23,612 nucleotides of DNA from Candidatus Hydrogenedentota bacterium (GCA_003697085.1 RFFU01000061.1:1-23612), one strand, 5' to 3'; shown: positions 124 through 21,870, numbered from the stretch's first letter. Made by a program: numbers and translations. Notes: generated by a model not told the origin, from the letters alone.

Positions 124-155
124 TTGACTCTGTACCAAGGTACGGGGTTTAGAAT
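124..155 (+). promoter_or_regulatory. MerR-type promoter of the merR-merTP operon
   Basis: A -35 box TTGACT (124-129) and a -10 box TAGAAT (150-155) are separated by 20 bp. That is longer than the usual 17 bp and is the hallmark of promoters that MerR-family activators untwist. The expected start of transcription, about 7 bp after the -10 box, falls on or next to the merR ATG at 162, so the mRNA would be leaderless or nearly so. Nothing recognisable was seen upstream in 1-123. Confidence 0.85.
127..148 (+). promoter_or_regulatory. MerR operator (imperfect palindrome)
   Basis: The core GTACC-AA-GGTAC (132-143) is a dyad lying inside the over-long promoter spacer, and weaker symmetry extends outward to 127 and 148. 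Known mer operators have GTAC half-sites in this position between the -35 and -10 boxes. The site therefore supports autoregulation of merR and mercury-induced expression of the downstream transporter. Confidence 0.8.
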
Positions 156-161
156 GCGATT

Positions 162-632
162 ATGAACAAGGAAAGAAAGCGGAAATCGGGGTTGGGCCAT
201 AAGGAAGAGTGGTTGTCGAGCGGAGGCGTGGCGTGCGCGGCATGGGTGTCCGTCGAAACGTGGCGGTATTATGAACGGAACGATCTGCTGCCACCCCCGC
301 CGCGGTCCTCCTCCGGATACCGTCGCTATCCGCTCGACGCCGTGCGGCGTCTCCACTTCGTGAAGAAGGCGCAGGTCCTAGGGTTTTCGCTTCGTGAAAT
401 CCGGGAGTTGTTGGGACTGCGGGGCGTTTCGGGAAAGAAACGTTGCGGAGAGGTTCGAAAGAAGGCGGAAGCGAAGATTGCGGAGATCGATGAGAAACTC
501 CGGCTTTTGAGGCCGATAAAACGAACGTTCGAGAAACTGGCGCGGGCCTGCCGGGAACGCCGACCGACGGTACCGTGCCCGGTCCTCGAGGCTCTCGACG
601 GCTCCCGGAGCGGAAAGGAGAGGGAAAGATGA
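162..632 (+). CDS. merR: Mercury-responsive MerR-family transcriptional regulator
   Basis: A 156-residue regulator that binds the spacer of its own promoter and activates it when Hg(II) binds. The N-terminal winged HTH is recognisable (VETWRYYERNDLLPP, then SGYRRY and FVKKAQVLGFSLREI), followed by a dimerisation helix at about 95-130. The three Hg(II)-ligand cysteines of MerR are present as Cys95 (KKRCGEV), Cys130 (ARACRE) and Cys139 (VPCPVLEAL), with spacing matching characterised MerR (82, 117, 126 in Tn501). This distinguishes it from copper, zinc or redox sensors of the family. Oddities are Trp28 where the HTH turn is normally Gly, and an extra Cys25. The ATG at 162 has no Shine-Dalgarno because it sits at the predicted transcription start. 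It overlaps the transporter gene by 4 bp (ATGA), so the two are one operon. Confidence 0.92.
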   Translation: MNKERKRKSGLGHKEEWLSSGGVACAAWVSVETWRYYERNDLLPPPPRSSSGYRRYPLDAVRRLHFVKKAQVLGFSLREIRELLGLRGVSGKKRCGEVRKKAEAKIAEIDEKLRLLRPIKRTFEKLARACRERRPTVPCPVLEALDGSRSGKERER

Positions 633-1282
633 AGAAGGAACGCCTGGCCGATTCCGCCTCCTTGCTGGCGGCTTTGGGAGCTTCGCTGTGCTGTGTGGGA
701 CCGTTCGTCCTGGTCGCGCTCGGCTTCGGAGCGGCCGCCGGCGCGGTCTCGGCTTTCTTTGCTCCGTGGCGGCCCTACCTGCTGGTAGTGGCCTTCGGAA
801 TCGTGGGCTGGCGTCTCTTCGTTCTTTATCGGCCCCGCCGGTTCTCCGCGCGGGCGTGTTCCGGGACGAAGGGAGAGTGTGGACCAGAGAAACTGTCTCG
901 AGAGAGGTCGTTGACGTGGGGTATTTTCGGGCTGGTTGTCCTTTTTGCCGCCGCGCCGTATCTTTTGGTGTTTATTCCTATGCTGAGCCCGCCTCTTTCC
1001 TCCGGAATCTCGCTGCCAACGTCCCAACCGGAATCGCCGGCGACACCGGCGTCCCGGCTCTGTTTTGCGATCGAAGGGATGACTTGCCCCGCGTGCGCGC
1101 GGCGAATCGAGGAAGCATTGAGGGAGATGCCCGGAGTGGAATCGGCGCGTGTCGATTACGGCAAGGCCGAAGCGTGCGTGGAGCCGACCGGAGAAACCGG
1201 GATTACGGAAGAGAAGGTAATCGCGGTGATCGGCACTTCCGGCTATGCCATACCGATAGCGTCCCCGGCGCCGTCCGGATGA
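629..1282 (+). CDS. merTP: MerT-MerP fusion, mercuric ion transporter
   Basis: A 217-residue inner-membrane protein that takes up Hg(II). Residues 1-120 are MerT-like: a first helix with the paired cysteines Cys21-Cys22 (SLCCVGPF), two further hydrophobic segments (about 48-67 and 97-118), and a cytoplasmic loop with Cys77 and Cys84, as in MerT. A Pro/Ser-rich linker (about 128-143) leads to a C-terminal heavy-metal-associated domain with the GMTCPAC motif (Cys153, Cys156), equivalent to MerP. Such MerT-MerP fusions are known. The start at 629 is chosen over an in-frame start at 575 because AAGGAG (615-620) is well spaced and the ATG overlaps the merR stop. No merA, merB or other mercury gene follows; the downstream DNA is degraded mobile-element sequence. 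Confidence 0.9.
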   Translation: MKKERLADSASLLAALGASLCCVGPFVLVALGFGAAAGAVSAFFAPWRPYLLVVAFGIVGWRLFVLYRPRRFSARACSGTKGECGPEKLSRERSLTWGIFGLVVLFAAAPYLLVFIPMLSPPLSSGISLPTSQPESPATPASRLCFAIEGMTCPACARRIEEALREMPGVESARVDYGKAEACVEPTGETGITEEKVIAVIGTSGYAIPIASPAPSG

Positions 1283-1307
1283 CGGAGTAAGGAAGCCACG
1301 GAAGACA

Positions 1308-1400
1308 GTAGAGTAGACGCTGGCCGGAGGCGTGACGCTCTCGGCTCTCCGCCCCCTCTTCGAACCGGACGTGCGGTTTTTCCGCATCTGGCTCTCTCGG
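1308..1400 (-). mobile_element. Group II intron 3' remnant (domains V and VI)
   Basis: Read on the minus strand, 1394-1362 gives a group II domain V hairpin: GAGCC at the 5' side, an UGCGG/CCGCA upper stem with a five-A loop, the CGU bulge, and the closing GGTTC. It is followed by GAAGAGGGGG, a domain VI-like segment, and CTACTCTAC ending near 1308, typical of bacterial group II intron 3' ends. One base of the lower stem (A where G is expected) mismatches. No reverse transcriptase ORF and no 5' end are found, so this is a dead fragment. Sequence on to about 1480 may also be intron (domain IV tail), but I cannot prove it. Confidence 0.72.
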
Positions 1401-1486
1401 AATCTCTCGCCTTGGGCATTCACAAAGGAATTTCGGTTCCTGTTTCGCCTTTCGGCCAAGTTTTGTCCTTAAATCGCCCGATGTAC

Positions 1487-1561
1487 ATGACTCCTTTGTT
1501 TCCCAGAGCGCGGCGCCTGGGCATCTCCCGCCCCCGCCTCGACCGCATCCTGAAACGCTGA
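1487..1561 (+). pseudogene. Possible relic of a Fis-type HTH C-terminus
   Basis: A short open frame ends in ARRLGISRPRLDRILKR and a stop at 1559-1561. This resembles the last helix-turn-helix of Fis/NtrC-type regulators, where A-x-x-LGISRxxLxRxLK is common. No body of such a gene precedes it. It lies beside the intron fragment, so it looks like the tail of a deleted gene. The match is short and could be chance. Confidence 0.3.
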
Positions 1562-1563
1562 CG

Positions 1564-1584
1564 AAAAAACCCCGGTTTCCGGAA
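1564..1584 (-). terminator. Rho-independent terminator of the methyltransferase-SDR-HlyIII operon
   Basis: On the minus strand, CCGG-AAA-CCGG (extended by two G-T pairs) is followed by six T residues. It lies about 50 bp downstream of the HlyIII stop codon, in the right orientation to end that operon. Confidence 0.6.
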
Positions 1585-1634
1585 CAATTATCCTTTCACA
1601 GATGGGGAATCCGGTCTTCAAGTATTGAACTGTA

Positions 1635-2354
1635 TCAGTGGGCCGGGGGAGGTATTACATAGAGAAAAACCGCGAGAAAGTGAAGGATGCTTCCGGCAAG
1701 AACGAAGAGGTGCCACAGAGCGTGGGAAAGCGGGACGCGCGGGTTGTCATAGAAAACGACTCCGACGGTATAGGATACCCCTCCGGCGAAAAGCAGTGCG
1801 ATCCCCGTTGTCCCGACTGCCGCCTTGATCTCACCGATTCCAAGAAGGCAGAGCCACCCCATAACGATATAGACGAGGACAGCGGTCTTCTCATAGCGAT
1901 CGATTGCAATCGCCTTAAAAAGGATGCCGATAAGCGCCAGAGCCCAAACGACTCCAAAGAGCGACCAGGCGAGCGCGGCGTTGGAACGGATCGAGACGAG
2001 CAGGACAGGTGTATAGGTGCCGGCGATAAGGAGATAGATGGCGGAATGGTCGAGGATGCGGAAGATGCGTGTCACGCGCGGTCCGGGAAGACTGTGGTAG
2101 AGGGTGGAGGCGGCATAGAGAAGGATGAGAGAGGCACCGAAGACGCTTCCGCTTACGATACTCCACGGATCACCGGAGCGTGAGGCTCGGACAACAAGAA
2201 GGACGGTGCCGGCGATGCCAAGGAGGAGGCCGAGTCCATGGGTGATGGCGTTGGCGATCTCGTGAAGAAGAGAGTAGCGTGGAGGCAGGCTTTGCCTCGA
2301 GTCGGTTTTCGGTTCGGAAGACGAAGGAAACTCCGGGCTCGCGGTTTCATCCAT
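1635..2354 (-). CDS. Hemolysin III (YqfA/PAQR-like) family membrane protein
   Basis: A 239-residue integral membrane protein with about seven hydrophobic helices. Family signatures are visible: HEIANAITHGLG near the N-terminus, LYAASTLYHSLPG, RILDHSAIYLLIAGTYTPVLL split over helices 3-4, and a C-terminal ALWHLFVLAGSILHF. The conserved Glu/His/Asp/His set forms the putative metal site of this CREST/PAQR-related superfamily. Despite the name, haemolysis is not established for most members; roles in membrane homeostasis are suggested, and I make no functional claim beyond the family. The ATG at 2354 overlaps the SDR stop by 8 bp. An upstream extension to 2525 in the same frame merely shadows the SDR and is rejected. 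It is the last gene of a three-gene minus-strand operon ended by the terminator at 1564-1584. Confidence 0.85.
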   Translation of the reverse strand: MDETASPEFPSSSEPKTDSRQSLPPRYSLLHEIANAITHGLGLLLGIAGTVLLVVRASRSGDPWSIVSGSVFGASLILLYAASTLYHSLPGPRVTRIFRILDHSAIYLLIAGTYTPVLLVSIRSNAALAWSLFGVVWALALIGILFKAIAIDRYEKTAVLVYIVMGWLCLLGIGEIKAAVGTTGIALLFAGGVSYTVGVVFYDNPRVPLSHALWHLFVLAGSILHFLAVFLYVIPPPAH

Positions 2355-3174
2355 AGCGAAGGCAGAGTTCGTGAAGGCGCCGGAGAGCGGAGCGGTCGCG
2401 GGAAAAGGGACAAAAAGCCTCGCGGCAATTGGAGAAGTAGCGCCCGGTGATTCCCTCCACCTCGGAAGAGAGGGCGAGAAAGAGGGGAGTCCGCGCTCCC
2501 TGCTCCGGCGTCTCGTGTCCTCCAAAACCCAGATCGTTGCTCAAACGCGAGTTGACATCACCCGGATGGCAGGAATTGATCGTGATCCCTGTTGAGGAAA
2601 GGGCTTCGGCGTGAGTGACGGTGAGCATTCGGTTGGCCTGCTTCGACTGGCGATAGGCGGTTCCGTTGGAGTAGCGCCGGCGGCGGAATTCGACATCATC
2701 GATATCGAGGTCGCCGGCCCAATAACTGGCGACGTTGACGACGCGGCTCGGCGCGGCGGCCGCGAGGGCTTCTCGAAAGAGTTCGACGAGCCGGAAGTAA
2801 CTCAGGACATTGACCGCCCATTGGAGCTCGATTCCGTCGGACGATTCCGTACGAGAGCGTGGGGCGATCGCGGCCGCATTGACGAGGAGTGAGAGGGGAT
2901 CGGCCCAATTTCGGGCGAGTTCACGAAGAGCAGAGGCGGAGGAGAGATCGATCGGAACGAAACGGATGGTAGCGGTCGGGGTTCTTCGGCGAAGCGATTC
3001 GAGCAATTCTTCCGCGCGGCCGCGGTTCCGCCCGAGTAACGTCACCTCACATCCGGCTTCCACGAGCCCCGCGACGATCGCTTGACCGATCGCCCCCGTT
3101 CCTCCGGTAACGAGGGCGCGTTTGGGAGAGCGGGGCGAAGAGGATAGGGGCGGGACAGCGGCGGAGAAATTCAT
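2347..3174 (-). CDS. Short-chain dehydrogenase/reductase (retinol-dehydrogenase-like)
   Basis: A 275-residue NAD(P)-dependent oxidoreductase. The Rossmann glycine motif TGGTGAIG is at 23-30, followed by LLGRNRGRAEELLESL, where the arginine after the second strand favours NADP(H). The acidic stretch VPIDLS, a variant NAA, catalytic Ser150 (VNVASYWAG) and Tyr174-x3-Lys178 (YRQSKQAN) follow. The long insertion between Ser and Tyr (DLDIDDVEFRRRRYSNG) and the later HPG are typical of the retinol dehydrogenase/WW-domain oxidoreductase branch rather than FabG. The substrate cannot be inferred. The ATG at 3174 overlaps the methyltransferase stop (ATGA); a longer open frame up to 3450 only shadows the methyltransferase. 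Being sandwiched between a methyltransferase and HlyIII suggests a lipid or small-molecule role, which is inference. Confidence 0.87.
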   Translation of the reverse strand: MNFSAAVPPLSSSPRSPKRALVTGGTGAIGQAIVAGLVEAGCEVTLLGRNRGRAEELLESLRRRTPTATIRFVPIDLSSASALRELARNWADPLSLLVNAAAIAPRSRTESSDGIELQWAVNVLSYFRLVELFREALAAAAPSRVVNVASYWAGDLDIDDVEFRRRRYSNGTAYRQSKQANRMLTVTHAEALSSTGITINSCHPGDVNSRLSNDLGFGGHETPEQGARTPLFLALSSEVEGITGRYFSNCREAFCPFSRDRSALRRLHELCLRYG

Positions 3175-4037
3175 GGCAGGTCCAAGGGTTTTCTGCGCGC
3201 GACGAGGAGAAGGTTCGCGCTGGCACGAATATCGCTCTCCGCAGGATCGGAGGAGACCCAACGAAGAATGGCGGGCGCCGGGAGGTGCCAGCGCCGGGGA
3301 AAAAGCACAGCGGACCCGAGGAGACGTTCGAGAAGGCGCGAAAGGAGCACGAAGGGGAGAAAGAGATCCATCAACATCTGGCGCCGTTTGCCGACATAGG
3401 CGACGAGTCCCGTGACATCGAACCCTTGTTTCTCGAGACGGCGCGTCCACGCGGCCGGAGGATCCTGGTGGACATGGTGGAAGGTTTTTCGAAGGAAGGA
3501 GAGGTAAAACCGCCGGAGCGGATCGAGCCGAATTATTCTCAATAGCCGTGCCCAGAAGAGAAGGGGTTCGTAGTGATCGGAGATCGTCGTTGCAAGAAAG
3601 GGCCCTCCGGGAATCAGAACCCGGGCCGTCTCGAGTAATGCGGTATCGATGTCATCCACGTGCTCGAGAACACAGTTGGAGACAGCGCCCTGAAACGTCC
3701 CGTCTCGAAACGGGAGCCGCGTCATATCAGCGACGACGAGATGGGGCGAGGTTCTCGAACGGGCGCGTTGGAGTTCTTCGAAGGAGCGGTCGATTGCGGC
3801 GAAGAACCGTTTTCCGTTTTTCTCGAGGAGCGCGGCGAAGCGACCGTCACCATGGCCGAGGTCGAGGATACGCCCGTTCGGGAAGCGGGGGAGAAGCAGA
3901 GCGGCTTCCCGACTTCGAATCAACGCGCGACTGAGCGGCGCGAAGAGAAGATAATCGAGAAAGAGAGGCAGGTCCGGCGGACGATATCCGGCGGCGTCCT
4001 CATCCTCCCGGATGTGCGCTGTCATCGGCGAAGTCAT
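3171..4037 (-). CDS. Class I SAM-dependent methyltransferase
   Basis: A 288-residue Methyltransf_11-type enzyme. SAM-binding motif I LDLGHGDGRF is at 58-67, a motif II acidic residue at AAIDRS, motif LVVADMTRLPFRDGTF next, then SNCVLEHVDD at 121-129 and ARVLIPGGPFLATT. The C-terminal part carries a hydrophobic stretch (MLMDLFLPFVLLSRLLERLL) that may contact membrane. The start at 4037 is preferred because GGAAGAAG lies just upstream; the open frame continues to 4136 without a ribosome-binding site, and that extension is judged untranslated leader. It is the first gene of the operon with the SDR (4 bp overlap) and HlyIII. The substrate is unknown. Confidence 0.83.
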   Translation of the reverse strand: MTSPMTAHIREDEDAAGYRPPDLPLFLDYLLFAPLSRALIRSREAALLLPRFPNGRILDLGHGDGRFAALLEKNGKRFFAAIDRSFEELQRARSRTSPHLVVADMTRLPFRDGTFQGAVSNCVLEHVDDIDTALLETARVLIPGGPFLATTISDHYEPLLFWARLLRIIRLDPLRRFYLSFLRKTFHHVHQDPPAAWTRRLEKQGFDVTGLVAYVGKRRQMLMDLFLPFVLLSRLLERLLGSAVLFPRRWHLPAPAILRWVSSDPAESDIRASANLLLVARRKPLDLP

Positions 4038-4414
4038 GTCTTCTTCCAAAACCATTTCAAAGAAACAGAAAGTGAGAAATCCGCACAGAGCCATCGTTCC
4101 GAACGTCCGAATCGCCGGCACACGGCCCCGCGGCAAAACGTACCGACACGGCGAATGGGTCGAGATAGATCACCCCTTACGATTCTCCTCTCTCACGGGG
4201 GCAACGTAGCCATAAGGAGTTCCCTTGTCAAGCAAGGCTGATTTCTTCCCGGGCAAAGAGAAAAAAAACGGATTTTTTTCGTGGACATTCTTCGCTTGAA
4301 TTCCATTTTATTCTCCGTGTTCCCTGTGTCCCTGTAGCGAATCTCCTTTTTCACGTTTCCGGTGAAAAGACGAAAAACTGGATAGACCCCCTCTTCCCGT
4401 TTACTCTGTCGCGG
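4038..4414. other. Divergent intergenic region
   Basis: This is the leader/promoter region between the minus-strand methyltransferase operon and the plus-strand glycosyltransferase. It contains the minus-strand promoter at 4203-4231. No plus-strand promoter with both boxes convincing was found, although the 4255-4320 segment is notably AT-rich. The glycosyltransferase start has no clear Shine-Dalgarno. Confidence 0.6.
4203..4231 (-). promoter_or_regulatory. Sigma70-like promoter for the methyltransferase operon
   Basis: On the minus strand a perfect TTGACA (4231-4226) is followed after 17 bp by TACGTT (4208-4203), a weak -10. Predicted transcription would begin near 4196, giving a leader of about 160 nt before the methyltransferase ATG. 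Confidence 0.45.
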
Positions 4415-6638
<2,224 letters not shown>

Positions 6639-6686
6639 AAAGAAGAAAGATGGTGACCTCGTGAAAGACGGTGAAAGCGGATCGGA

Positions 6687-7067
6687 TCAGGCGAGACGAA
6701 GGTAGGACGTGCGGAGAGCCGTGAGGTTGTTTCTCAGGAGCGCGTCTTCCTCGGGCGTGAGATTACCAGCCGTCTTTTCCTGAAGAACTCCCAGAACATC
6801 GATGAGATAGCGGGCCTGGGAGAGATTCTTTTTCGTCTCACCGGTGGAGGGATGAGGCATCTCCCCGAGTGCGATGTGCGCTTCCATTACGAGTGTGGCA
6901 ATGAAGAAATCGAAACGCGCCGGCGGGACCTTGGTTTCATTTCCCGTTTCGTCCTCCGCAACCTGGGCCTTCTTCCCGAAGGCTTCGCGCGCCTCGCGAT
7001 CCTTCTCCTCCTGGACCGTTCCGGTATCCGGAGCGGATTCCCGCGGAGGCGTCGAATCTTCCGCCAT
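6687..7067 (-). CDS. DUF1844 domain protein
   Basis: A 126-residue small soluble protein. The N-terminal third (about 1-50) is acidic, low-complexity and rich in Glu/Asp/Pro/Lys. The C-terminal part matches the DUF1844 pattern: FDFFIATLVMEAHIALGE, then a conserved Pro-x-T-G-E, ARYLIDVLGVLQEKTAGN, LTPEEDALL and a closing LRTSYL. The family's function is unknown; it occurs widely in diderm phyla, often beside translation or metabolism genes. The start at 7067 is preferred over 7145 because of a strong GGAGGTG six bases upstream. It is convergent with leuB (48 bp apart, no obvious terminator) and divergent from the sugar transporter operon. Confidence 0.8.
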   Translation of the reverse strand: MAEDSTPPRESAPDTGTVQEEKDREAREAFGKKAQVAEDETGNETKVPPARFDFFIATLVMEAHIALGEMPHPSTGETKKNLSQARYLIDVLGVLQEKTAGNLTPEEDALLRNNLTALRTSYLRLA

Positions 7068-7073
7068 AATGCT

Positions 7074-7080
7074 CACCTCC
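7074..7080 (-). promoter_or_regulatory. Strong ribosome-binding site fixing the DUF1844 start
   Basis: Minus-strand GGAGGTG lies six bases before the ATG at 7067-7065, so the longer open frame beginning at 7145 is not the likely protein. Confidence 0.75.
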
Positions 7081-7300
7081 AACGAACGGATAATATCGGA
7101 TTTCCGTCCGAAGAAAAGATCAAGAACCTCGAAGAGATATTTCAACCGCCTCGTCTTTCCATCTCCGGGAGGCTGAGTCCCTTTCTACCTCCCAAAACAC
7201 CAAAATCATAGTGCTCCGACAGGCGACAGGCCGAGGCCGCGCAACAACGAGTTTTTTCGGACGGCTCCGAAAAAAAACAATACAACGTTTTCTTCTTTCC

Positions 7301-7330
7301 TTGACGCAAGCGAGAAAACACTGTTATACC
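7301..7330 (+). promoter_or_regulatory. Sigma70-like promoter of the sugar transporter operon
   Basis: TTGACG (7301-7306) is followed by TTATAC (7324-7329, spacing 17) or TATACC (7325-7330, spacing 18). The expected transcript start, about 7336-7337, coincides with the first usable ATG of the transporter gene. Confidence 0.6.
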
Positions 7331-7336
7331 TTTGTT

Positions 7337-9763
7337 ATGCTTTTTTTCTGTTTGAAACCGCTTACACGTTATGTCGGCACTCTAAAGGATTCCTGCTGCA
7401 TCGTCTGGAAAAGGAGTTCGTCCGCGCGAGATCGGATTTCACCGATCCGCCGCAGGCGCAGCCGACTCCGAAGACATATCGGCTTCGTTTCCACCTTCTT
7501 TCTCTTTTCCCTTCCTCTTTCTTTTTTCCTAACACCGTCTCTCGCGTCTGCGGGAACGGGGCCCCGGAGCAATCCGACCTCTTCCCCGCCGGTCACCATC
7601 AAGGTCTGGGTGATGGGGGAAGAAGGAAAGAAACTCGCGGCTCTTCTCGACCGTTTCCACTCTTCCCATCCTTCGATCCGTATCCAACCTCAAACGATTC
7701 CCTGGGGCGCGGCCCACGAAAAACTCATCACGGCCGTGGTCGGCGACATCCCTCCGGACGTCGCGCAGATGGGAACGACCTGGATGCCGGAATTCCAGGG
7801 GATGGGAGCGCTGGCCGATCTTTCCCGGAACATCCAGGCCGATCCCTCGATCAAGTCCGAGTTCTTCTTTCCCGGAGCCTGGAAGACGGTTGAATACGAA
7901 AACGGAGTCTTCGGCATTCCGTGGTATGTCGAGACGCGCTGTCTCTTTTACCGAAAGGATGTCTTAAAGAAGTGCGGCTTCGAACACCCCCCGCGAACCT
8001 GGGAGGAACTGCGTGAGATCGGAGCAGTACTGGCAAAGCGGCCGAACGGATTCGGAATCTCCCTCTCCCCGACTGATCCTCTCCTTTTGGCTCCCTTCAT
8101 CTGGCAGGCCGGAGGTTTCATCCTGGACTCAAAAAAGGACTTGGGAATACTTGAACCTTCTTTTCGGCGCGGACTCGAGTTCTTCGCCTCCCTCTTCCAC
8201 GACGGTATCGCCCCGCTGGGTGATGCAGCCGATCTCGATCCCGTCCAGGCCTTTTCCGACAAGACCGCGACCCTGCCCCTTTTCATTTCGGGGCCGTGGT
8301 CCGTGGAGCAATTGAACCGCCAGGCTCCGCATTTGAAAGGGAAGTGGGGAGTCGCTCCTTTGCCGAGGGGAAAGACGGGGGCCTCGTTTCTCGGTGGAAG
8401 CGATCTCGTCGTCTTTCGGAAAGCAAAACATCCGCGGGAAGCCTGGGAATTCGTGCGGTTTATGGCGCAAGCCGAAACACAAAGGGATTGGTACGTGATT
8501 AGCAACGGTCTTCCTTCCCGACGTGACGCCTGGCGATTACCGCCGCTGAAGGGCAATGCGGACCTGAAACCCTTCGGTATTCAACTCAAATCGGCTCGTC
8601 CCACCCCGATGGTTCCCGAATGGGAACAGATCGGCGCGGTGCTGGCGCGTTTCACGGAGCGAGTCATTCATCGAACGATCGACGTACCGACGGCGCTTCA
8701 AAAAATGGATGATCAGATCCGCCGGATTCTCGAGCGCGACGAACGCCCCCAAAGCTGGCTCTACAAGGGAGGAATTCTCCTTGCGGCGGCTCTTTTGTTC
8801 GGTTTCCTCTTCTTCGGATATCTCCTTCGAACACCGAAAACCTCCGGGAAACGTTCAGGAGATCTGACGGGGATCGATCTGCGGGAACATCCCGCCTATA
8901 AAAAGTCGCTCCTCCTCTTCCTCTCGCCCGCCCTTATTCTCCTCACCATCTTCCTCTTTCTCCCCGTGCTCGCTTCCTTTCTGATGAGCCTGACCAATTA
9001 CGACATCTACTCCATCGCCGACATCGACCGAATGCGGGTCGTCAATCTCGAAAACTACAAAACGATCTTGACCGATCCGCTCTTTTGGACCTCGGTCAAG
9101 AACACCCTCATCTTCGCCGGAATCGGTGGGCCTCTGACGATCTGCGTTTCGCTGGCCGCCGCGTTGGCCTTGGAACGACTTCACACTCTGCGCGCCGTTT
9201 TCCGAACCGGTTTTTTTCTCCCTGTCGTTACGACGCTGGTTGCGGTCGCGGTTGTTTGGAAATGGATCTATCACCCGCGATACGGTCTTCTCAACGCCGT
9301 TCTCGAATTGCTCGGGGATTCCCCGAGGGATTGGTTGGCGGATCCGAGCACGGCGTTGGGATGCCTGATCGCGATGGCCGTCTGGAAGAATTTCGGCTAC
9401 AATATGGTGATTCTCCTGGCGGGGCTTCAGGCGATCCCTCGCCGGTACTACGAGGCGGCCGAGATCGATGGGGCGAACGGCTTGCGCCGCTTCCTCGATA
9501 TCACTCTCCCTCTTCTCTCCCCGACGCTCCTGCTTGTGACCATAATGACAACGATCGGATACCTTCAGTTCTTCGCGGAACCCTACATTATGACGGACGG
9601 CGGCCCGGTCGATTCCACGCTCTCCGTCGTCCTTTATCTCTACCGGAAAGGCTTTCGTTTCTATCGGCTTGGTGAGGCGGCGGCCACGTCCTACATCCTC
9701 TTCTTGATGATCTTCTTCTTCTCGATGGGACAGATTCTATGGGCGCGAAAGAAGGAAGCGTAA
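7337..9763 (+). CDS. Fused sugar-binding protein and MalF-like ABC permease
   Basis: An 808-residue fusion. Residues about 48-71 form a hydrophobic signal/anchor after an Arg-rich stretch. Residues about 86-470 are a family 1 extracellular solute-binding protein (VTIKVWVMGEEG at the N-lobe, WGAAHEKLITAVVGDIPPDV, GIPWYVETRCLFYRKD, then LFISGPWSVEQL and LGGSDLVVF). One transmembrane segment (about 476-498) returns the chain to the cytoplasm. The MalF-type permease follows from about 520, with the EAA loop at 706 (EAAEIDGANGLRRF) contacting the ATPase. The topology is coherent: binding domain outside, permease inside the membrane. It probably imports a di- or oligosaccharide. The start is uncertain: ATG 7337 coincides with the predicted transcript start and no better ATG/GTG/TTG precedes the signal segment. 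The N-terminal 45 residues look atypical. The open frame extends upstream to 7211 but crosses the promoter. Confidence 0.85.
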   Translation: MLFFCLKPLTRYVGTLKDSCCIVWKRSSSARDRISPIRRRRSRLRRHIGFVSTFFLFSLPLSFFLTPSLASAGTGPRSNPTSSPPVTIKVWVMGEEGKKLAALLDRFHSSHPSIRIQPQTIPWGAAHEKLITAVVGDIPPDVAQMGTTWMPEFQGMGALADLSRNIQADPSIKSEFFFPGAWKTVEYENGVFGIPWYVETRCLFYRKDVLKKCGFEHPPRTWEELREIGAVLAKRPNGFGISLSPTDPLLLAPFIWQAGGFILDSKKDLGILEPSFRRGLEFFASLFHDGIAPLGDAADLDPVQAFSDKTATLPLFISGPWSVEQLNRQAPHLKGKWGVAPLPRGKTGASFLGGSDLVVFRKAKHPREAWEFVRFMAQAETQRDWYVISNGLPSRRDAWRLPPLKGNADLKPFGIQLKSARPTPMVPEWEQIGAVLARFTERVIHRTIDVPTALQKMDDQIRRILERDERPQSWLYKGGILLAAALLFGFLFFGYLLRTPKTSGKRSGDLTGIDLREHPAYKKSLLLFLSPALILLTIFLFLPVLASFLMSLTNYDIYSIADIDRMRVVNLENYKTILTDPLFWTSVKNTLIFAGIGGPLTICVSLAAALALERLHTLRAVFRTGFFLPVVTTLVAVAVVWKWIYHPRYGLLNAVLELLGDSPRDWLADPSTALGCLIAMAVWKNFGYNMVILLAGLQAIPRRYYEAAEIDGANGLRRFLDITLPLLSPTLLLVTIMTTIGYLQFFAEPYIMTDGGPVDSTLSVVLYLYRKGFRFYRLGEAAATSYILFLMIFFFSMGQILWARKKEA
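7353..7366 (+). promoter_or_regulatory. LacI/GalR-type operator
   Basis: TGAAACCGCTTACA fits the LacI-family/cre consensus TGWAANCGNTNWCA at every defined position, including the central CG. It lies about 16-30 bp after the predicted transcription start of the sugar transporter operon, an ideal roadblock or repressor position. No LacI-family gene is in the window, so the cognate regulator must be elsewhere. Confidence 0.65.
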
Positions 9764-10599
9764 TGCGCACCGACTCCTCCGAGGGACGCCGCACCGACTT
9801 CCCGCTGCTCTACGCCGCCGCGACGCTCTGCTTGATCATCACTGTGGCTCCTTTCGCCTGGATGTTCCTCTCGTCGATCAAGCCGACCTCCGAGATTCTC
9901 AAGATGCCCCCCGTCTGGCTTCCCTCCACGATCACATTCGAACACTATCGCCGACTCTGGTCCTCGGCATTCGCATCGAGTATGGTGAATTCGGCCGTCG
10001 TAAGCATCAGCATCACGCTCACAACGATTCTCGTCAACTCGATGGCCGGTTTCGCCTTCGCGAAATACCGTTTTCCGGGACGGGAACGGCTCTTCACCTT
10101 GCTTCTGGCCACGATGATGATCCCCGGACAGGTTACGATGATCCCGGTCTTCATCCTTCTCAAGTATCTCGGCCTTCTCAACTCTTACACGGGCCTTGTC
10201 CTACCGGGAACCGCCAGCGTCTTCGCGATCTTTTTGATGCGCCAGTTTATGATGGGGATCCCGGATTCGGTACTCGAGGCAGCGCGGCTCGACGGGGCTT
10301 CCGAACCGCGCCTCTTCGCTCAAATCGTTCTTCCCCTGGCAATGCCCGCCATCGCCACGCTCGTCATCTTCACCTTTATGGCCTCGTGGAACGAGTTCCT
10401 CTGGGCTTTGATCATTATGCTCGATGAATCCAAGTACACCGTTCCGGTTGCACTGGCGGCGCTCAACGGCCAATACGGAACCGATTGGGGACTCTTGATG
10501 GCCGGCTCCGTCGTGACGATCCTCCCCGTTCTCGGAGTCTTTCTCCTTATGCAGAAACATTATATCCGCGGCATCGCCACTTCAGGGTTGAAGGGATGA
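9763..10599 (+). CDS. MalG-like ABC sugar permease
   Basis: A 278-residue inner-membrane permease, partner of the upstream MalF-like domain. There are about six transmembrane helices, the first at about 12-35 (PLLYAAATLCLIITVAPFAW), followed by SSIKPTSEI, typical of MalG/LacG proteins. NSMAGFAFAKYRFPGR and the EAA loop at 172 (EAARLDGASEPRLF, then LPLAMPAIATL) match the family, as does the cytoplasmic C-terminal tail ending in a Gly-rich segment. The ATG at 9763 shares one base with the upstream stop (TAATG) and has AAGGAAG before it; an in-frame start at 9739 would overlap the permease fusion. It overlaps the GH94 gene by 4 bp. Confidence 0.92.
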   Translation: MRTDSSEGRRTDFPLLYAAATLCLIITVAPFAWMFLSSIKPTSEILKMPPVWLPSTITFEHYRRLWSSAFASSMVNSAVVSISITLTTILVNSMAGFAFAKYRFPGRERLFTLLLATMMIPGQVTMIPVFILLKYLGLLNSYTGLVLPGTASVFAIFLMRQFMMGIPDSVLEAARLDGASEPRLFAQIVLPLAMPAIATLVIFTFMASWNEFLWALIIMLDESKYTVPVALAALNGQYGTDWGLLMAGSVVTILPVLGVFLLMQKHYIRGIATSGLKG

Positions 10600-13073
10600 A
10601 ACGACCAAAGGCCAAATCCCTCCGAAATCGTAACTCTCTTCGAGAAAAGATCGTCACTCCCCGCCGGAAAACCACCCGCTCCTCCCCCTCTCCGAAACAT
10701 CTTCGCTATTCCTTTGAGGGAAACGGAGAGGAATTCGTCTTCCACGGTCGGCCGAAGGTCCCTTGGAGCCACGTCCTCACCAACGGACGATTCGGCTCCG
10801 TCTGGACGGACCAGGGCGGCGCCTTCGCATGGTGTGGAAACAGTGTCCTTGACCGGATCACCCGTTGGGAACAGGACCTCGTTCTCAATCGGGCCTGGCG
10901 GACCGTCTATATCGTGGACGGAAGCGGCACGATTCGGAGTCTGACGCCTTCCCCCGCGGGTGAGGAAGCGGAATGGACGATTCGTTATGCTCCCGGAATC
11001 GCACGCTATATCGGGAGGTACGACCGCTATACGACCAGCCTCGAGGTGATCGTTCTTCCCGACTTGAATGCGGAGGTCTGGTATGCCAGTGTCGCTTTTC
11101 ATCGCCCGCCGAACGGGAACAAAACCCTGCGTTTCTTCTCCGCACAGGACATTCTTCTGGGATCGTGGCCGGACACCCACCGGGAATTTCACCGTCTCTT
11201 CATCGAATGTGGTTTGTCGAAGGGACGCGGCCGGCCGGACGTGTTAACGTTTTCGAAGAAGATCCATCCTGCTCCGGGAGTCTCGGAACCCTGGAATGAA
11301 TCGTATCCCGGCGTTGCCGCCCATGCCGCCAGGCCGAAACCGGCGGGATTCGAGACGGACCGGCGGCGATTCTACGGATATGCCGGTTCCTTCAAGCAGC
11401 CGGCCGCACTGCTCGAACCTCCCCGAAAAGGGCTTCTGGGCCCCTGGGGAGACGCCATGGCGGGTTGGGATGTTCCTCGACGAGTCGGCCGGGACGGGAA
11501 GGTCTCCGCCGTTTTCGTTACAACCTTTGGAAGAAAGGAAAGGAGCGCCGTTCACACCGCAGTCAAAGCCCTTCGAGTCCCGCAAGCCGCCGCCGAAGAG
11601 TCCGTCCGTCGTTTCTGGATACGAGAACTGGGAGAAGGAAGCGCTGAGACTCCGTCCGCCGATCTCAATCCGATGATCTCGATCTGGCTCAGACTCCAAG
11701 CCATTGCCAGCCGTCTCTATGGTCGCTGCGCGCTCTATCAGGCCTCGGGAGCAATCGGTTACCGCGACCAACTTCAGGACAGCCTCGTCCTCCTTCCCGC
11801 CGCTCCGGAGCGGACATTGGAGCAGATTCGGATTCACCTCGAACACCAGTTTTCCGCCGGTGATTCTCTTCATTGGTGGCATCCGAAAACGAATTCGGGC
11901 CCGCGCGACAACTGTTCTGATGATTATCTTTGGCCGATCCTAGCGGCTGGAGAGTATTTCCGAGAGACTGGTGACCCTCGTTTTCTCGACCGTAAATGTC
12001 CCTTTCTCGATGCCGGCCCCGCTCCCTATTGGGATCACTTACGGCGAGCAATCGACCGAGCATGGCGAAACCGTTCCCCGCGTGGTCTGCCTTTGATGGG
12101 CTCCTGCGATTGGAACGACGGACTCTCCTCGGCGGGAGACGAGGGGCGCGGAGAATCGGCGTGGGTTGCCCATTTTCTCCATTTTCTCCTCAAGGAAATG
12201 GCCCTTCTGGCCGAGGCGCGGGAAGAAAACCCCGAGGAATTCCTTGGCCGGGCGCGAGAACTCTATCGCCTCGTCAATCGCTATGCCTGGGACGGCGCCT
12301 GGTATATCCAAGGAACGACGGACGGCGGAGCGCCGATTGGAAGCCACCGCTGCCGCGAGGGAAAGATTCACCTCAACCCGCAAACCTGGAGCCTGATCAG
12401 CGGAACGGGGCGGGGGGCGTACGCGGAACGCGGAGAACAGGCACTGTGCTCCGTGGAAAAACATCTCCTCGTCGATTGGGGAGTGTTACTTCTCGCCCCC
12501 GCCTATTCTCGTCCTGATCCCACGATCGGTTACCTCACGCGCTATGCTCCAGGCCGAAGGGAAAACGGAGGTGTCTATACGCATGCAGCCGTTTGGGCGG
12601 CCCGAGCGGCGCGTATCGCGGGGAAAGCGGACCTTTGCCGGCGGATTCTTTTTTCGCTTCTGCCTCCCGTCCGTGGACGCGATCCGCGTTACGAAGCGGA
12701 ACCTTATGTCACTCCTGGAAATATCGACGGACCAGCAACACCCACTCCCGGAAAAGGCGGCTGGACGTGGTACACCGGATCAGCGGCGTGGCTTCAACGC
12801 TGTCTCTTCGAGGACCTTCTCGGAATTCGGAGCCAACCGGAAGGAATCGAGTTCGAGCCGACCGTGCCGCCGGACTGGGTGGGGTTTTCGGTGAAGAGGC
12901 CTTGGCGGGGAAAACTCCTCGAGATTCATCTGATACGCTCCGAGGATGAGGGCGTTGAGGTGAAGGGAAGCCGAGGCGGGATCGCCTCTCTTCCCGGTTC
13001 TTTTCTTCCGGCACGAATTCTTCACGGACGAGGGCCTTTCCGAATCCGCGTGTCTTACAGACCGCGATCATGA
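10596..13073 (+). CDS. GH94 family glycoside phosphorylase
   Basis: An 825-residue cytoplasmic enzyme (no signal peptide; a Lys/Arg-rich start) that should cleave a beta-linked gluco- or GlcNAc-disaccharide with phosphate, giving a sugar 1-phosphate. The N-terminal beta-sandwich contains GRFGSVWTDQGGAFAW. The (alpha/alpha)6 domain has GYRDQLQDSL, LHWWHPKTNSGPRDNCSDDY and DWNDGLSSAG, with the general acid Asp at 508 by homology with cellobiose phosphorylase. ENGGVYTHAAVWAARAA and GWTWYTGSAAWLQR follow as phosphate/substrate-site motifs. Most GH94 members read GDWNDGMNRVG here; this one has SCDWNDGLSSAG, so substrate specificity is open (cellobiose, chitobiose, laminaribiose and others are possible). 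ATG 10596 overlaps the malG stop (ATGA). It sits inside the transporter operon, matching import of its substrate. Confidence 0.87.
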   Translation: MKRPKAKSLRNRNSLREKIVTPRRKTTRSSPSPKHLRYSFEGNGEEFVFHGRPKVPWSHVLTNGRFGSVWTDQGGAFAWCGNSVLDRITRWEQDLVLNRAWRTVYIVDGSGTIRSLTPSPAGEEAEWTIRYAPGIARYIGRYDRYTTSLEVIVLPDLNAEVWYASVAFHRPPNGNKTLRFFSAQDILLGSWPDTHREFHRLFIECGLSKGRGRPDVLTFSKKIHPAPGVSEPWNESYPGVAAHAARPKPAGFETDRRRFYGYAGSFKQPAALLEPPRKGLLGPWGDAMAGWDVPRRVGRDGKVSAVFVTTFGRKERSAVHTAVKALRVPQAAAEESVRRFWIRELGEGSAETPSADLNPMISIWLRLQAIASRLYGRCALYQASGAIGYRDQLQDSLVLLPAAPERTLEQIRIHLEHQFSAGDSLHWWHPKTNSGPRDNCSDDYLWPILAAGEYFRETGDPRFLDRKCPFLDAGPAPYWDHLRRAIDRAWRNRSPRGLPLMGSCDWNDGLSSAGDEGRGESAWVAHFLHFLLKEMALLAEAREENPEEFLGRARELYRLVNRYAWDGAWYIQGTTDGGAPIGSHRCREGKIHLNPQTWSLISGTGRGAYAERGEQALCSVEKHLLVDWGVLLLAPAYSRPDPTIGYLTRYAPGRRENGGVYTHAAVWAARAARIAGKADLCRRILFSLLPPVRGRDPRYEAEPYVTPGNIDGPATPTPGKGGWTWYTGSAAWLQRCLFEDLLGIRSQPEGIEFEPTVPPDWVGFSVKRPWRGKLLEIHLIRSEDEGVEVKGSRGGIASLPGSFLPARILHGRGPFRIRVSYRPRS

Positions 13074-13181
13074 TCGTTTTCCTCACCAACCACCGAATTC
13101 ACGGAACCAAGATTCTCCCGAAACTTACAGGAAGCAGCGAGGGGAATTTAAAAATGCCACCTGGAGTTTTTTAAGATAAGA

Positions 13182-13189
13182 GGAGGTGA
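13182..13189 (+). promoter_or_regulatory. Strong ribosome-binding site of the ATPase gene
   Basis: GGAGGTGA ends four bases before ATG 13194 and fixes that start. The 120 bp between the phosphorylase stop and this gene contain no convincing promoter or terminator. An A/T-rich patch (13145-13176) precedes the site. Confidence 0.75.
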
Positions 13190-13193
13190 AGAC

Positions 13194-14306
13194 ATGGCGG
13201 AGATCATCTTTGATTCGGTAGGCAAAGTTTATCCGAACGGCCAGCGCGCCGTAACGAACGCATCGTTCACGGTTCCCGACGGTTCCTTCACGGTTCTGGT
13301 CGGACCTTCCGGGTGCGGCAAATCGACGCTGTTGAGAATGACGGCCGGGCTCGAAACCATCTCTTCCGGTTCGATCTCGATCGAAGGCGTCCGAATCAAC
13401 GAGGTTCCGCCCAAGGATCGGGATATCGCAATGGTTTTCCAGGATTACGCGCTCTACCCGCATATGACGGTTGCGGAAAATATGGCATACGCATTGCGAT
13501 TACGCGGCTTGGCGCGGGACGAGATCGACCGGCGGATTCGAAATGCGGCCGAGATCCTGGGCCTGACGGCTCTGCTGAACCGAAAGCCGGCACAGATGTC
13601 GGGGGGACAGAGACAACGCGTCGCGGTCGGCAGGGCCATCGTCCGTCATCCCAAGGCCTTCCTCTTCGATGAACCGCTCTCGAACCTCGATGCAAAACTT
13701 CGCGTGCAGATGCGCAGTGAACTCTCGATGCTTCATAAGCGTCTCAAGGCCACGATGATTTATGTCACGCACGATCAAGTGGAGGCGATGACGATGGGGG
13801 ACCAGATCGTGGTTCTCAACGAGGGAAGGATTCAACAGATCGATACTCCGATGAACCTTTATCTTCGACCTCGCAATCGCTTCGTTGCCGGTTTTATCGG
13901 GAGCCCGGCGATGAATTTTCTGGAGATGAGATTGGATGAAGACGGCCGCACGGCCCTCGGGCGAGGGTTTTCACTGGGGTGTTCTGACGCGTTGGCGCGG
14001 GCTCTGGCGCGGACCCCCGAAAAGCGCGGCATTGTCGGAATACGCCCTGAAGACCTGCACGACCGTTTGGAATGGCCCGATGCACCTTCCGACAGGATTC
14101 TGACGGCGGTGGCGGTCAATGTCGAACCGCTTGGTGCCGAGGTCTTCGTCGCCGCGGCCGTCGGTGAAGAACAGATTACGGCCCGATTCCGTGGAGACTT
14201 CATTCCCGAAACCGGTTCCCGCCTCGAACTCGTCCCCGACTTTTCTCGGATTCATGTCTTCCATCCGGAGACCGGAGAACGAATCGAAATTCCGGACGAG
14301 ACATAA
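13194..14306 (+). CDS. MalK/UgpC-type ABC transporter ATPase
   Basis: A 370-residue cytoplasmic ATPase that powers sugar import. Walker A GPSGCGKST is at 37-45, the Q-loop at Gln83 (VFQDYALYPHMTV), signature MSGGQ at 135-139, Walker B FLFDEP with Asp159-Glu160, a D-loop SNLDAKLR and H-loop His193 (YVTHDQ). FIGSPAMNFL introduces a C-terminal TOBE/OB regulatory domain (about 235-370, with GIRPEDL), characteristic of MalK, UgpC and MsmK. Length is normal for the family. It lies downstream of the permeases and phosphorylase and likely serves them. UgpC/MsmK-type ATPases often serve several transporters, so shared use is possible. Confidence 0.92.
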   Translation: MAEIIFDSVGKVYPNGQRAVTNASFTVPDGSFTVLVGPSGCGKSTLLRMTAGLETISSGSISIEGVRINEVPPKDRDIAMVFQDYALYPHMTVAENMAYALRLRGLARDEIDRRIRNAAEILGLTALLNRKPAQMSGGQRQRVAVGRAIVRHPKAFLFDEPLSNLDAKLRVQMRSELSMLHKRLKATMIYVTHDQVEAMTMGDQIVVLNEGRIQQIDTPMNLYLRPRNRFVAGFIGSPAMNFLEMRLDEDGRTALGRGFSLGCSDALARALARTPEKRGIVGIRPEDLHDRLEWPDAPSDRILTAVAVNVEPLGAEVFVAAAVGEEQITARFRGDFIPETGSRLELVPDFSRIHVFHPETGERIEIPDET

Positions 14307-14505: not shown

Positions 14506-15735
14506 ATGAACGGTTCCTGGGACATCCTTTTCTTCGCCGCTGCAGGGGGAATCGCGCTTCTTCTTCCCGCAATCAAAAACGACCGCTTTTCCTGGAGAGT
14601 GGCGCTCCCGGCCGGCGGTGCGGCGTTTCTTCTTTCCTTGGGTCTTCACGGCGTCGGAGCGCTTCTTCCGGGAATCGGCTTCACGACGCTCGTCGCGTTC
14701 TCCGGTCTGATCGGCGCCATTATCGGTGAACAAATTCTAAACCGAACACTCTCCCTCGATGATCGAAAGCATGCGATGGAGAAAGAAGTCCATGAGTTGA
14801 GGCAGGAGATTCAAACCATTCGCAAAAGGGAGCGGACGCTTCACCAGCAGATCGAATCGCACCGGGAACTGAACGAACTGGCCGGCCGCTTCGGGCTGTG
14901 CGAGAGCATCGAGGATGTCGAGCGGACTCTTCTCCGATCCGCGCGGACGATCCTCCGCACCGACGGCGTACGCCTACTTCGCCCGGACGGCAGCGGTCCC
15001 GGGTCGGATTTGCCGGAGCCGCTGCGCTTCGCTTCCCGATTGACAAATCCGACCCGCCGCTCGGAAGGAGGCTATCATATGATGGCGGTGCCGGTGCGTC
15101 GGTTGAAGAGCCGCGACACGGCCGTGCTCGTCGTTTTCCGCAGGAGGGAATGGAACCTCAATGAATTCCGGCTCCTCTTCACCATCTGCGAGATCGCGCA
15201 CCAAGCCTTGCTTGCCGCCGAGTTAGCCGACGAAATCAAGTACGCCGCGACTCACGATGCGCTCACCAACCTCTACACGCGCCTCGAGATCGAACGTATT
15301 CTCGGCCGGGAATTTCTCCTCGCCCGCCGCGCACGGCGTTCCATCGCCGTCGCCATCATCGACATCGACCGTTTCAAGCGCATCAATGATTCCTTCGGTC
15401 ACAAGGTGGGAGACGAGGTTCTTGAACGACTCGGCGGTTTGATTCTCGATCGTCTTCGGCTTCCGGCGGGACGATGGGGCGGCGAAGAGATCGTGATCGC
15501 CCTGCCGGGAGGAAAGGCTCGAAACCTTCGCGACGAGCTGCGGAAGTTCCTCCGGTTCGTTTCCTCGGAAATCTTTCTCCCTGACGGTTCGCCCGTGCGC
15601 TTCTCCGGCGGCGTGGCGGAATTTCCTCGAGACGGCGACATGATCGCCGACGTGATCGCCGCCGCCGACGCGGCGCTCTATCGCGCCAAGGACTCCGGAA
15701 GAAACAGAATTGTCTCCTTCGAAGAGGAAGCGTGA
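14506..15735 (+). CDS. Membrane GGDEF protein with probable GAF domain, GGEEI variant
   Basis: A 409-residue putative diguanylate cyclase. Two to three N-terminal hydrophobic segments (about 7-24, 33-52, 55-78) are followed by a coiled coil (about 85-128, KEVHELRQEIQTIRKRER). A GAF-like region (about 125-235) comes next and a GGDEF domain (about 243-405) last. Substrate-binding IDIDRFKRINDSFGHKVGDEVL is intact. The signature reads GGEEI (325-329): the catalytic Glu is kept, the final Phe is replaced by Ile. The inhibitory RxxD site is lost; the aligned segment is RLRLPAGRWGG. If active, it would make c-di-GMP without product inhibition; alternatively it is a degenerate sensor. Weak AAGGCGG supports the start. 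It overlaps the next GGDEF gene by 1 bp. Confidence 0.85.
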   Translation: MNGSWDILFFAAAGGIALLLPAIKNDRFSWRVALPAGGAAFLLSLGLHGVGALLPGIGFTTLVAFSGLIGAIIGEQILNRTLSLDDRKHAMEKEVHELRQEIQTIRKRERTLHQQIESHRELNELAGRFGLCESIEDVERTLLRSARTILRTDGVRLLRPDGSGPGSDLPEPLRFASRLTNPTRRSEGGYHMMAVPVRRLKSRDTAVLVVFRRREWNLNEFRLLFTICEIAHQALLAAELADEIKYAATHDALTNLYTRLEIERILGREFLLARRARRSIAVAIIDIDRFKRINDSFGHKVGDEVLERLGGLILDRLRLPAGRWGGEEIVIALPGGKARNLRDELRKFLRFVSSEIFLPDGSPVRFSGGVAEFPRDGDMIADVIAAADAALYRAKDSGRNRIVSFEEEA

Positions 15736-16997
15736 TGGCCTCTCTCCCGCTTCTCTTTTGGCTCGTCACGCTCGCTCTCAATCTCTTCCTGCTCTTCAAT
15801 GGAAAGATTCACGGCCCATGGAGTGTTCTCCTCGACGGCAAGGCGGCGACGGGGGCCTTTCTCCTGGAAGCCCTGCTCTTCCAGGCAGCCGTGCTCCACG
15901 AAACATGGAAGCATGCCTTCGATATCGCGGAGGGACGGGTTCGTCCTCATCGGAAACGGATTCTCCTCTTCTTCCTCCTTTCGGGAGCCATCCTGACCGA
16001 CCCTGCGGCCTGGACAACGGTCGGTATCATTCTTTTGCTCGGCCGCTTTACCGTTTCCCGCGCGAGGAACATCGAAACCTATGAAAGAAACGACGCGTTG
16101 CGATTCCAAAGAATCCGCGAAAAGATCGCCGTGGACCACAGCGCCGCGGCAAAACAGGAGGAATACCTCCGGCAGGTCCTTCAAGACTACGTGGAGCAAC
16201 TGACGCTGATTCAAGAACTTCTCGTTATTCAGGATCGCGATACCTTGGTGGATCGACTTTCGTCCATCGGTCGGCGCCTCCAGATCGAGCCGCGGTTTCT
16301 CGAGAAAATCCGAGAGCGGATTCTTGAGAGCAGACCGGCCGCGAGTGATTCGCCGGAGGAATTCCAGTCGTTTTTCGGAACGGATAGCCTGGGAAGCGCG
16401 ACTTTCTCTCTCGATGGAATCGAGATTCCGCCGGAGAAAAAACGTTCCTGGAAGAATTTTCTTGCGATTGTGAGATTGGCCCAACTCATCCTCCTTCGAA
16501 TCCATCGGCTCAAGAAGGCGCAGGAGATCGCGCGGAAGGATTATCTCACGGGTTTGCCGAATCGCCGCGCCTTCGAGAACATGATGAAGGCGGAATCCGA
16601 ACGCACCCGACGCCTCGAACTTCCCTGTTCCTTTATGATGATTGACATCGATCACTTCAAATCCTTCAACGATACGTACGGCCATCTTGTCGGGGATATC
16701 GTCCTCAAGGCCGTCGCGAACGCCATTCAGAACTCCTCCCGCCTCTCCGATTTCGTAGCGCGGTATGGCGGGGAGGAATTCGCCGTTCTTTCGCCCGAGA
16801 CGCCTTTGGAGGGAGCCATGATTCAAGCCGAACGAATCCGCAGAGCGGTGGAGCACTTGGAAGTACTACCCGCCGGACACCAACGCCCTCTTTCCGTCAC
16901 CGTTTCGATCGGGGTTTCCGACGTGGATATCGACACCGCCGATGAAGCGCTCTACGCGGCGAAGAAAAAGGGCCGCAACCGCGTCGAAACTTCCTAA
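15735..16997 (+). CDS. Membrane diguanylate cyclase (GGEEF)
   Basis: A 420-residue protein with an N-terminal membrane region (about 4-22, 36-55 and 75-104), a helical/coiled-coil middle (about 110-260), and a C-terminal GGDEF domain (about 258-420). DYLTGLPNRRAF, MIDIDHFKSFNDTYGHLVGD, a canonical GGEEF (345-349) and an intact RxxD inhibitory site (RLSD, 336-339) predict an active, product-inhibited diguanylate cyclase making c-di-GMP from two GTP. SIGVSDVDIDTADEALYAAKKKGRN closes the domain. No known sensor domain is recognised in the middle. The ATG shares one base with the upstream TGA (TGATG); a GTG three bases earlier is less likely. GAGGAAG precedes it. The pair clearly form an operon. 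Confidence 0.9.
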   Translation: MASLPLLFWLVTLALNLFLLFNGKIHGPWSVLLDGKAATGAFLLEALLFQAAVLHETWKHAFDIAEGRVRPHRKRILLFFLLSGAILTDPAAWTTVGIILLLGRFTVSRARNIETYERNDALRFQRIREKIAVDHSAAAKQEEYLRQVLQDYVEQLTLIQELLVIQDRDTLVDRLSSIGRRLQIEPRFLEKIRERILESRPAASDSPEEFQSFFGTDSLGSATFSLDGIEIPPEKKRSWKNFLAIVRLAQLILLRIHRLKKAQEIARKDYLTGLPNRRAFENMMKAESERTRRLELPCSFMMIDIDHFKSFNDTYGHLVGDIVLKAVANAIQNSSRLSDFVARYGGEEFAVLSPETPLEGAMIQAERIRRAVEHLEVLPAGHQRPLSVTVSIGVSDVDIDTADEALYAAKKKGRNRVETS

Positions 16998-21803: not shown

Positions 21804-21870
21804 TCTTTTTTCCGCCCTCCGTTCCTTCCCCAACCCCCTACGGTTGGAAAAATCCGCTCTCCTTTTTCAT

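What the first reader, a model, noticed from the sequence alone, without database searches (positions are those of the whole stretch)
7337..14306. Sugar uptake cassette with binding protein fused to a MalF-like permease and a GH94 phosphorylase inside the operon
Seen: a solute-binding domain, a linking transmembrane segment and a full MalF-type permease with its EAA loop occupy one 808-residue frame. MalG (1 bp overlap), GH94 (4 bp overlap) and a MalK-type ATPase follow. Known: MalE-type proteins are normally separate and free or lipid-anchored; fused binding proteins are known for GlnP- and OpuA-type importers but are uncommon for the MalF family. Inference: one tethered receptor per transporter, coupled to phosphorolytic cleavage, would suit scavenging of scarce beta-linked oligosaccharide.
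Basis: partly seen in the sequence, partly recalled or inferred. Interest (0 to 1): 0.7.

Follow-up and report, generated by a model that had tools for sequence, protein, structure and literature searches.

The report
Tethered beta-1,2-glucan importer with signalling genes

Summary
One unbroken frame (7337-9763) encodes a solute-binding domain, a linking helix and a complete MalF-type permease. MalG, a GH94 phosphorylase and a MalK/UgpC ATPase follow.

The fusion is neither an artefact nor unique. Twenty independently assembled genome records encode the same fusion, and they form one clade. In a broad sample, 26 of 386 genomes carry an unbroken SBP-MalF fusion, and unrelated ones arose separately.

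The likely substrate can be named. The binding domain's best sequence and structure match is Listeria Lin1841, the beta-1,2-glucooligosaccharide-binding protein. [quoted passage not shown] Related loci often carry GH144, the endo-beta-1,2-glucanase family.

GH94 is as frequent beside unfused relatives (27/58) as beside fused ones (10/20). So the suggested functional link between fusion and phosphorolysis is not supported.

MalK is followed by two tandem GGDEF (diguanylate cyclase) genes. In this genome all four MalK genes have such a pair, and ten genomes from nine families have a GGDEF gene directly after MalK. This suggests transporter-linked c-di-GMP signalling, which is untested and which I did not find described.

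Verdict: a new variant of a known transporter kind, plus an unexplained conserved MalK-DGC-DGC module.

The parts
7337..9763 (+). SBP-MalF fusion gene, 808 aa (start codon uncertain)
   Evidence: single frame; Pfam SBP_bac_1 + BPD_transp_1; 20 fused homologues in other genome records
7445..7528 (+). signal-like helix, residues 37-64, preceded by an Arg-rich stretch and followed by a possible ASA|G cleavage site
   Evidence: AlphaFold helix 37-64; sequence; cleavage inferred
7580..8746 (+). solute-binding domain, residues 82-470, Lin1841-like
   Evidence: best PDB hit 5ysb, E 1.8e-86; the seven best Foldseek hits are all beta-1,2-glucooligosaccharide-binding protein chains, TMt 0.87-0.93
8756..8827 (+). 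linking transmembrane helix, residues 474-497, followed by a basic cytoplasmic loop
   Evidence: AlphaFold helix; hydropathy maximum 2.38 over 19 residues in the linker
8891..9760 (+). MalF-type permease domain, residues 519-808, with the EAA loop at about 704-729
9763..10599 (+). malG-type permease gene, 1 bp overlap
10596..13073 (+). [quoted passage not shown]
13194..14306 (+). malK/ugpC-type ATPase gene with OB_MalK and TOBE_2 domains
   Evidence: over the UgpC subfamily cut-off
14506..15735 (+). DGC-A: membrane GGDEF protein (motif GGEEI, no RxxD I-site), 409 aa
15732..16997 (+). DGC-B: membrane GGDEF protein (motif GGEEF, I-site RLSD), 421 aa; GTG start gives a 4 bp overlap with DGC-A

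Best explanation
This is a CUT1-type ABC importer for beta-1,2-glucooligosaccharides (sophoro-oligosaccharides). The receptor domain sits in the periplasm and is anchored by an extra transmembrane helix to the N-terminus of its own MalF. Each SBP-MalF/MalG/MalK2 complex therefore has exactly one captive receptor and does not depend on a soluble pool. After ATP-driven import, the cytoplasmic GH94 enzyme releases glucose 1-phosphate from the chain using phosphate. Shown: the gene order, the single frame, the domain make-up, the extra helix, the clade of fused homologues, and the relationship of receptor and phosphorylase to proteins of known beta-1,2-glucan specificity. Inferred: the substrate, the direction of the enzyme reaction, complex stoichiometry, and co-transcription. 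Also inferred and unproven: that the two diguanylate cyclases behind MalK couple transporter status to c-di-GMP.
For: Receptor: best solved relative is Lin1841 (E 1.8e-86; seven best structural hits), described as a Sop(n)-binding protein in PMC8861115 and in the PDB titles. [quoted passage not shown] It lacks the short insertion with the subsite +2 arginine of chitobiose/cellobiose phosphorylase, and has RENGG and WYTGS where those enzymes have KEN and WLTG. This fits the open +2 site and residues R916 and Y1004 reported for LpSOGP (PMC5309861); I mapped those residues by motif. Context: GH144 lies in 12 of 20 fused and 33 of 58 split homologous loci; GH35, the family of the characterised beta-1,2-glucosyltransferase, lies in two more fused loci. 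The Ignavibacterium cluster in PMC8861115 has the same parts. The same genome has a GH144 gene near a second Lin1841-like receptor gene. The sister genome keeps orthologues of GH94, MalK, DGC-A and DGC-B together with a GH35-like gene. Fusion: one clade of 20, support 0.84.
Against: No binding or enzyme data for this protein. The second-best solved receptor is Xanthomonas MalE 3uor (E 6.8e-76), deposited as a maltose-type protein. There is no GH144 in this 23.6 kb contig. The GH94 is not in the Listeria-type SOGP clade, and I found no report of a characterised stand-alone enzyme of the CGS type. The clade support is moderate.
Confidence: 0.75

Rival explanations
1. The importer and GH94 handle another beta-linked or maltose-type disaccharide (cellobiose, chitobiose or maltodextrin); the similarity to beta-1,2-glucan proteins reflects ancestry only.
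For: 3uor (MalE-like) is nearly as close; receptor specificity changes easily within this family; a Bdellovibrionales member of the fused clade has no GH94 or GH144 within its locus.
Against: Both receptor and enzyme point independently to beta-1,2; GH144 is frequent next to homologues; the cellobiose-phosphorylase-type GH94 of this genome is a different gene (C106, motifs RGMGFRDSAQD, KENGG, SWLTG); the Bdellovibrionales locus has a GH35 gene beside MalK.
Confidence: 0.15
2. Ordinary uptake cassette in which the fusion has no functional consequence: a neutral gene fusion fixed once and inherited.
For: GH94 and GH144 frequencies do not differ between fused and split relatives; split relatives have short gaps or overlaps between the SBP and malF genes, so loss of one stop codon plus gain of a helix is an easy step.
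Against: Every fused clade member examined keeps a hydrophobic linker segment, and similar fusions arose elsewhere (L041 and L043 fall outside the clade), which hints at a recurrent benefit of tethering.
Confidence: 0.35
3. The diguanylate cyclases are chance neighbours with no link to the transporter.
For: A 199 bp gap separates MalK from DGC-A; no functional data; MalK genes of most other genomes examined lack them (33 of 43 genomes).
Against: 4 of 4 MalK genes in this genome, 2 of 2 in the sister genome and 2 of 3 in G030 are followed by such a pair, although this genome has only 17 GGDEF matches; 10 genomes in 9 families show a GGDEF gene directly behind MalK.
Confidence: 0.1

Closest known systems
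Listeria innocua beta-1,2-glucan cluster (Lin1839 SOGP, Lin1840 GH3, lin1841-lin1843 transporter genes; PMC3960220)
   Same: receptor family, two permeases, a GH94 phosphorylase in one cluster
   Different: receptor is a separate protein there; SOGP is a distant, longer GH94; no ATPase-DGC module was seen there
Ignavibacterium album beta-1,2-glucan cluster (IALB_1177 CGS-type GH94, IALB_1185 GH35, IALB_1187 receptor, GH144; PMC8861115)
   Same: same kind of stand-alone GH94 and the same receptor family; GH35 and GH144 also occur in relatives of the window locus
   Different: related Ignavibacteria loci have a split receptor and MalF; GH144 and GH35 are not in the window contig
Bdellovibrio bacteriovorus MalE-MalF fusion maltose transporter (Licht et al. 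2019, recalled, paper not held)
   Same: binding domain fused to the MalF N-terminus
   Different: reported for maltodextrins; direct comparison not done here. A Bdellovibrionales fusion (L089) does fall in the same clade as the window protein
GlnPQ and OpuA importers with fused binding domains (PMC8025302 for GlnPQ)
   Same: binding domain covalently linked to the permease
   Different: other permease families; GlnPQ carries four binding domains per transporter (title of a reference seen), where one is expected here
[quoted passage not shown]
   Same: closest solved relative of the phosphorylase; same catalytic and subsite motifs
   Different: there it is the C-terminal domain of a very large membrane synthase; here it is a free enzyme in an uptake cassette

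Membership tests
CUT1 (MalFGK2-type) ABC importers | SBP_bac_1/8 receptor, two BPD_transp_1 permeases with EAA loops, ATPase with OB/TOBE C-terminus | tested here: met
   EAA loops read directly in both permeases
Lin1841-type beta-1,2-glucooligosaccharide receptors | closest sequence and structure among solved receptors | tested here: met
Lin1841-type beta-1,2-glucooligosaccharide receptors | binds sophorotriose to sophoropentaose; ligand-contacting residues conserved | not tested
   structure paper not held; binding needs an assay
1,2-beta-oligoglucan phosphorylase, Listeria/Lachnoclostridium-type SOGP | falls in the SOGP clade with the extra N-terminal domain | tested here: not met
   825 aa against 1086-1168; BLAST 49-62 bits to SOGP homologues against 437-906 to CGS-type enzymes of similar length
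[quoted passage not shown]
Enzymes with beta-1,2-glucan phosphorolysis | open subsite +2 (no arginine), Arg at +1, Tyr at +2 | tested here: inconclusive
   motif comparison fits (with PMC5309861), but residues were mapped by motif without the LpSOGP sequence; no activity data
SBP-MalF fusion clade | unbroken frame with a transmembrane linker; grouped with other fusions | tested here: met
Active diguanylate cyclases | GG[DE]EF signature | tested here: inconclusive
   DGC-B has GGEEF and an RxxD I-site; DGC-A has GGEEI; activity not testable

The most novel reading that the evidence does not exclude
MalK-DGC-A-DGC-B is a conserved signalling module: the sugar-importer ATPase, or its working state, controls two membrane diguanylate cyclases, one without and one with the product-inhibition site, so that oligosaccharide uptake sets c-di-GMP levels and hence attachment or motility.
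Probability: 0.4. Interest if true: 0.8.

Novelty: new variant of a known kind. Interest (0 to 1): 0.5.

Why it matters
It puts a probable substrate (beta-1,2-glucan) on a widespread clade of receptor-permease fusions from little-studied phyla, giving a natural system for testing what tethering a receptor does to an importer of the best-studied maltose type. The repeated MalK-DGC-DGC arrangement makes a direct, testable link between sugar import and c-di-GMP signalling, which I did not find described in the papers searched.

Tried and rejected
Assembly join or frameshift as the cause of the fusion: rejected, since 20 other genome records share it. Fusion tied to the phosphorylase: rejected. 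Some long 'open frames' looked like fusions but were separate genes (L016, L034), so fusions were recounted by ORF or by absence of internal stops. L124 looked fused but is a probable frameshift and was set aside. A cellobiose-phosphorylase identity for the window GH94: rejected by motifs and score, while the GH94 at C106 does have that type. No sigma-70-like promoter was found in front of the run by the consensus scan, nor a plus-strand terminator-like site in the gaps between the genes, so operon limits stay open. Literature searches for the MalE-MalF fusion and for MalK with diguanylate cyclases found nothing on point.

Full report
What is there. The window is the whole of contig C91 in a 3.2 Mb draft genome (95% complete by the tool's figures); only one other held genome shares its order. 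Bases 7337-9763 form one frame of 808 codons. Pfam finds SBP_bac_1 at residues 95-382 and BPD_transp_1 at 614-797. AlphaFold, fed with 20 fused homologues, gives a confident binding domain, a helix at 474-497, a disordered loop and the permease bundle. By sequence the topology is consistent: signal-like helix, periplasmic receptor, one extra helix going in, a basic loop, then the usual MalF start on the inside. MalG overlaps by 1 bp, GH94 by 4 bp; MalK follows after 120 bp. The exact start codon is not settled.

The fusion is real and shared. A scan of named genomes returned 80 loci. Twenty of these besides the window encode an unbroken fusion, from records labelled Elusimicrobia, Riflebacteria, Wallbacteria, Lindowbacteria, Hydrogenedentes (the sister genome), UBP16, Chlamydiae and Bdellovibrionales, among others. 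On a tree of receptor, MalF and MalG together, all 20 fused members that could be placed (window included) form one clade with support 0.84, among split relatives from Listeria, Paenibacillus, Thermotogae, Ignavibacteria and Proteobacteria. Other fusions (L041, L043) lie outside, so fusion happened more than once. In 386 broadly sampled genomes, 26 have a frame without internal stops spanning both domains at E <= 1e-100. This genome has two more fused importers, C55 (cut by the contig end) and C106.

The substrate. The receptor's closest solved relative is Lin1841 of Listeria innocua by sequence (E 1.8e-86) and by structure (seven best hits, with sophorotriose to sophoropentaose complexes among them). 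PMC8861115 describes it as a Sop(n)-binding protein. [quoted passage not shown] Compared with chitobiose and cellobiose phosphorylases it lacks the short insertion that holds the arginine filling subsite +2, and it has Arg and Tyr where those have Lys and Leu; PMC5309861 reports that small residues, R916 and Y1004 build the +1/+2 sites of a beta-1,2-oligoglucan phosphorylase. My residue mapping is by motif and should be checked. The enzyme does not belong to the Listeria-type SOGP clade itself. GH144, the endo-beta-1,2-glucanase family named in PMC8861115, lies in 12 of 20 fused and 33 of 58 split loci, detected with the GH144-like protein (PF10091) of this genome. That protein lies on C118 with a second receptor gene and a LacI-type regulator but no permease found on that contig. 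PMC8861115 describes a cluster in Ignavibacterium album with the same kinds of parts, including a CGS-type stand-alone GH94.

Does the fusion go with phosphorolysis? No. GH94 is found in 10 of 20 fused and 27 of 58 split loci (Fisher p 0.80; related loci and cut contigs make this rough). In at least seven fused loci GH94 lies within 100 bp behind MalG, as in the window, so the order is partly conserved, but the enzyme belongs to the substrate, not to the tether.

How it most likely works. Inferred: the captive receptor binds sophoro-oligosaccharides in the periplasm and hands them to its own MalF/MalG channel; MalK drives transport; GH94 cuts with phosphate in the cytoplasm and saves an ATP per glucose. 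Tethering replaces a soluble receptor pool with one receptor per channel. Why this was kept is unknown; a neutral fusion is a serious rival.

What lies just outside the given coordinates. MalK is followed on the same strand by two GGDEF proteins (14506-15735 and 15732-16997). The genome has only 17 GGDEF matches, eight of them in four tandem pairs. It has four close MalK homologues, and each is followed by one of these pairs; random placement would give this with a probability of about 2e-13 on a crude gene count. The sister genome has two of two, G030 two of three, and the pair was confirmed at six further loci in five genomes. Among 43 genomes picked for the most similar MalK, 10 genomes in 9 families have a GGDEF gene directly behind MalK; 33 do not. 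By score, first members mostly resemble first members and second members second members. In all second members read, the RxxD motif ahead of GGEEF/GGEEI/GGEEM/GGDEI is present, while first members lack it with one exception at C55. In the sister genome GH94, a GH35-like gene, MalK, DGC-A and DGC-B stand together on a contig separate from the fused gene and MalG. I found no description of such a module in the papers searched; that library lacks most subscription journals.

Novelty. The transporter is a new variant of a known kind. The MalE-MalF fusion principle has, as far as I recall, been described for Bdellovibrio (Licht et al. 2019, not held here). The beta-1,2-glucan assignment for the fused clade and the MalK-DGC-DGC module are, to my knowledge, undescribed; both remain inferences until tested.

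Noticed in passing
window 14506-16997: Tandem GGDEF pair behind MalK; all four close MalK homologues in this genome have one (C91, C20, C106, C55), as do relatives in several families.
   Followed up: yes
L139 (G000:C118) 6005-7951 and 11942-13228: GH144-like enzyme with a CBM9 domain near a second, separate Lin1841-like receptor gene and a LacI regulator, with no permease found on the contig; a second receptor for the tethered importer is conceivable.
   Followed up: partly
L050 (G000:C106) 6468-11454: An 887 aa SBP-MalF protein followed by a 772 aa MalG-type protein with a large unexplained N-terminal part.
   Followed up: partly
L047 (G000:C55) 1-7142: A third SBP-MalF fusion (cut by the contig end) followed by MalG, MalK and a GGDEF pair.
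   Followed up: yes
L138 (G000:C106) 8307-10778: A separate GH94 with cellobiose-phosphorylase-type motifs in the same genome.
   Followed up: partly
L181 (G001:C104) 901-8770: Sister genome: GH94, GH35-like, MalK, DGC-A and DGC-B in a row, apart from the fused gene.
   Followed up: yes
L212 (G174:C180) 3-6116: CGS-type GH94 beside a MalK-DGC-DGC module in an unrelated family.
   Followed up: partly
window 20865-21833: FecR-domain protein with a long basic, charged C-terminal tail.
   Followed up: no
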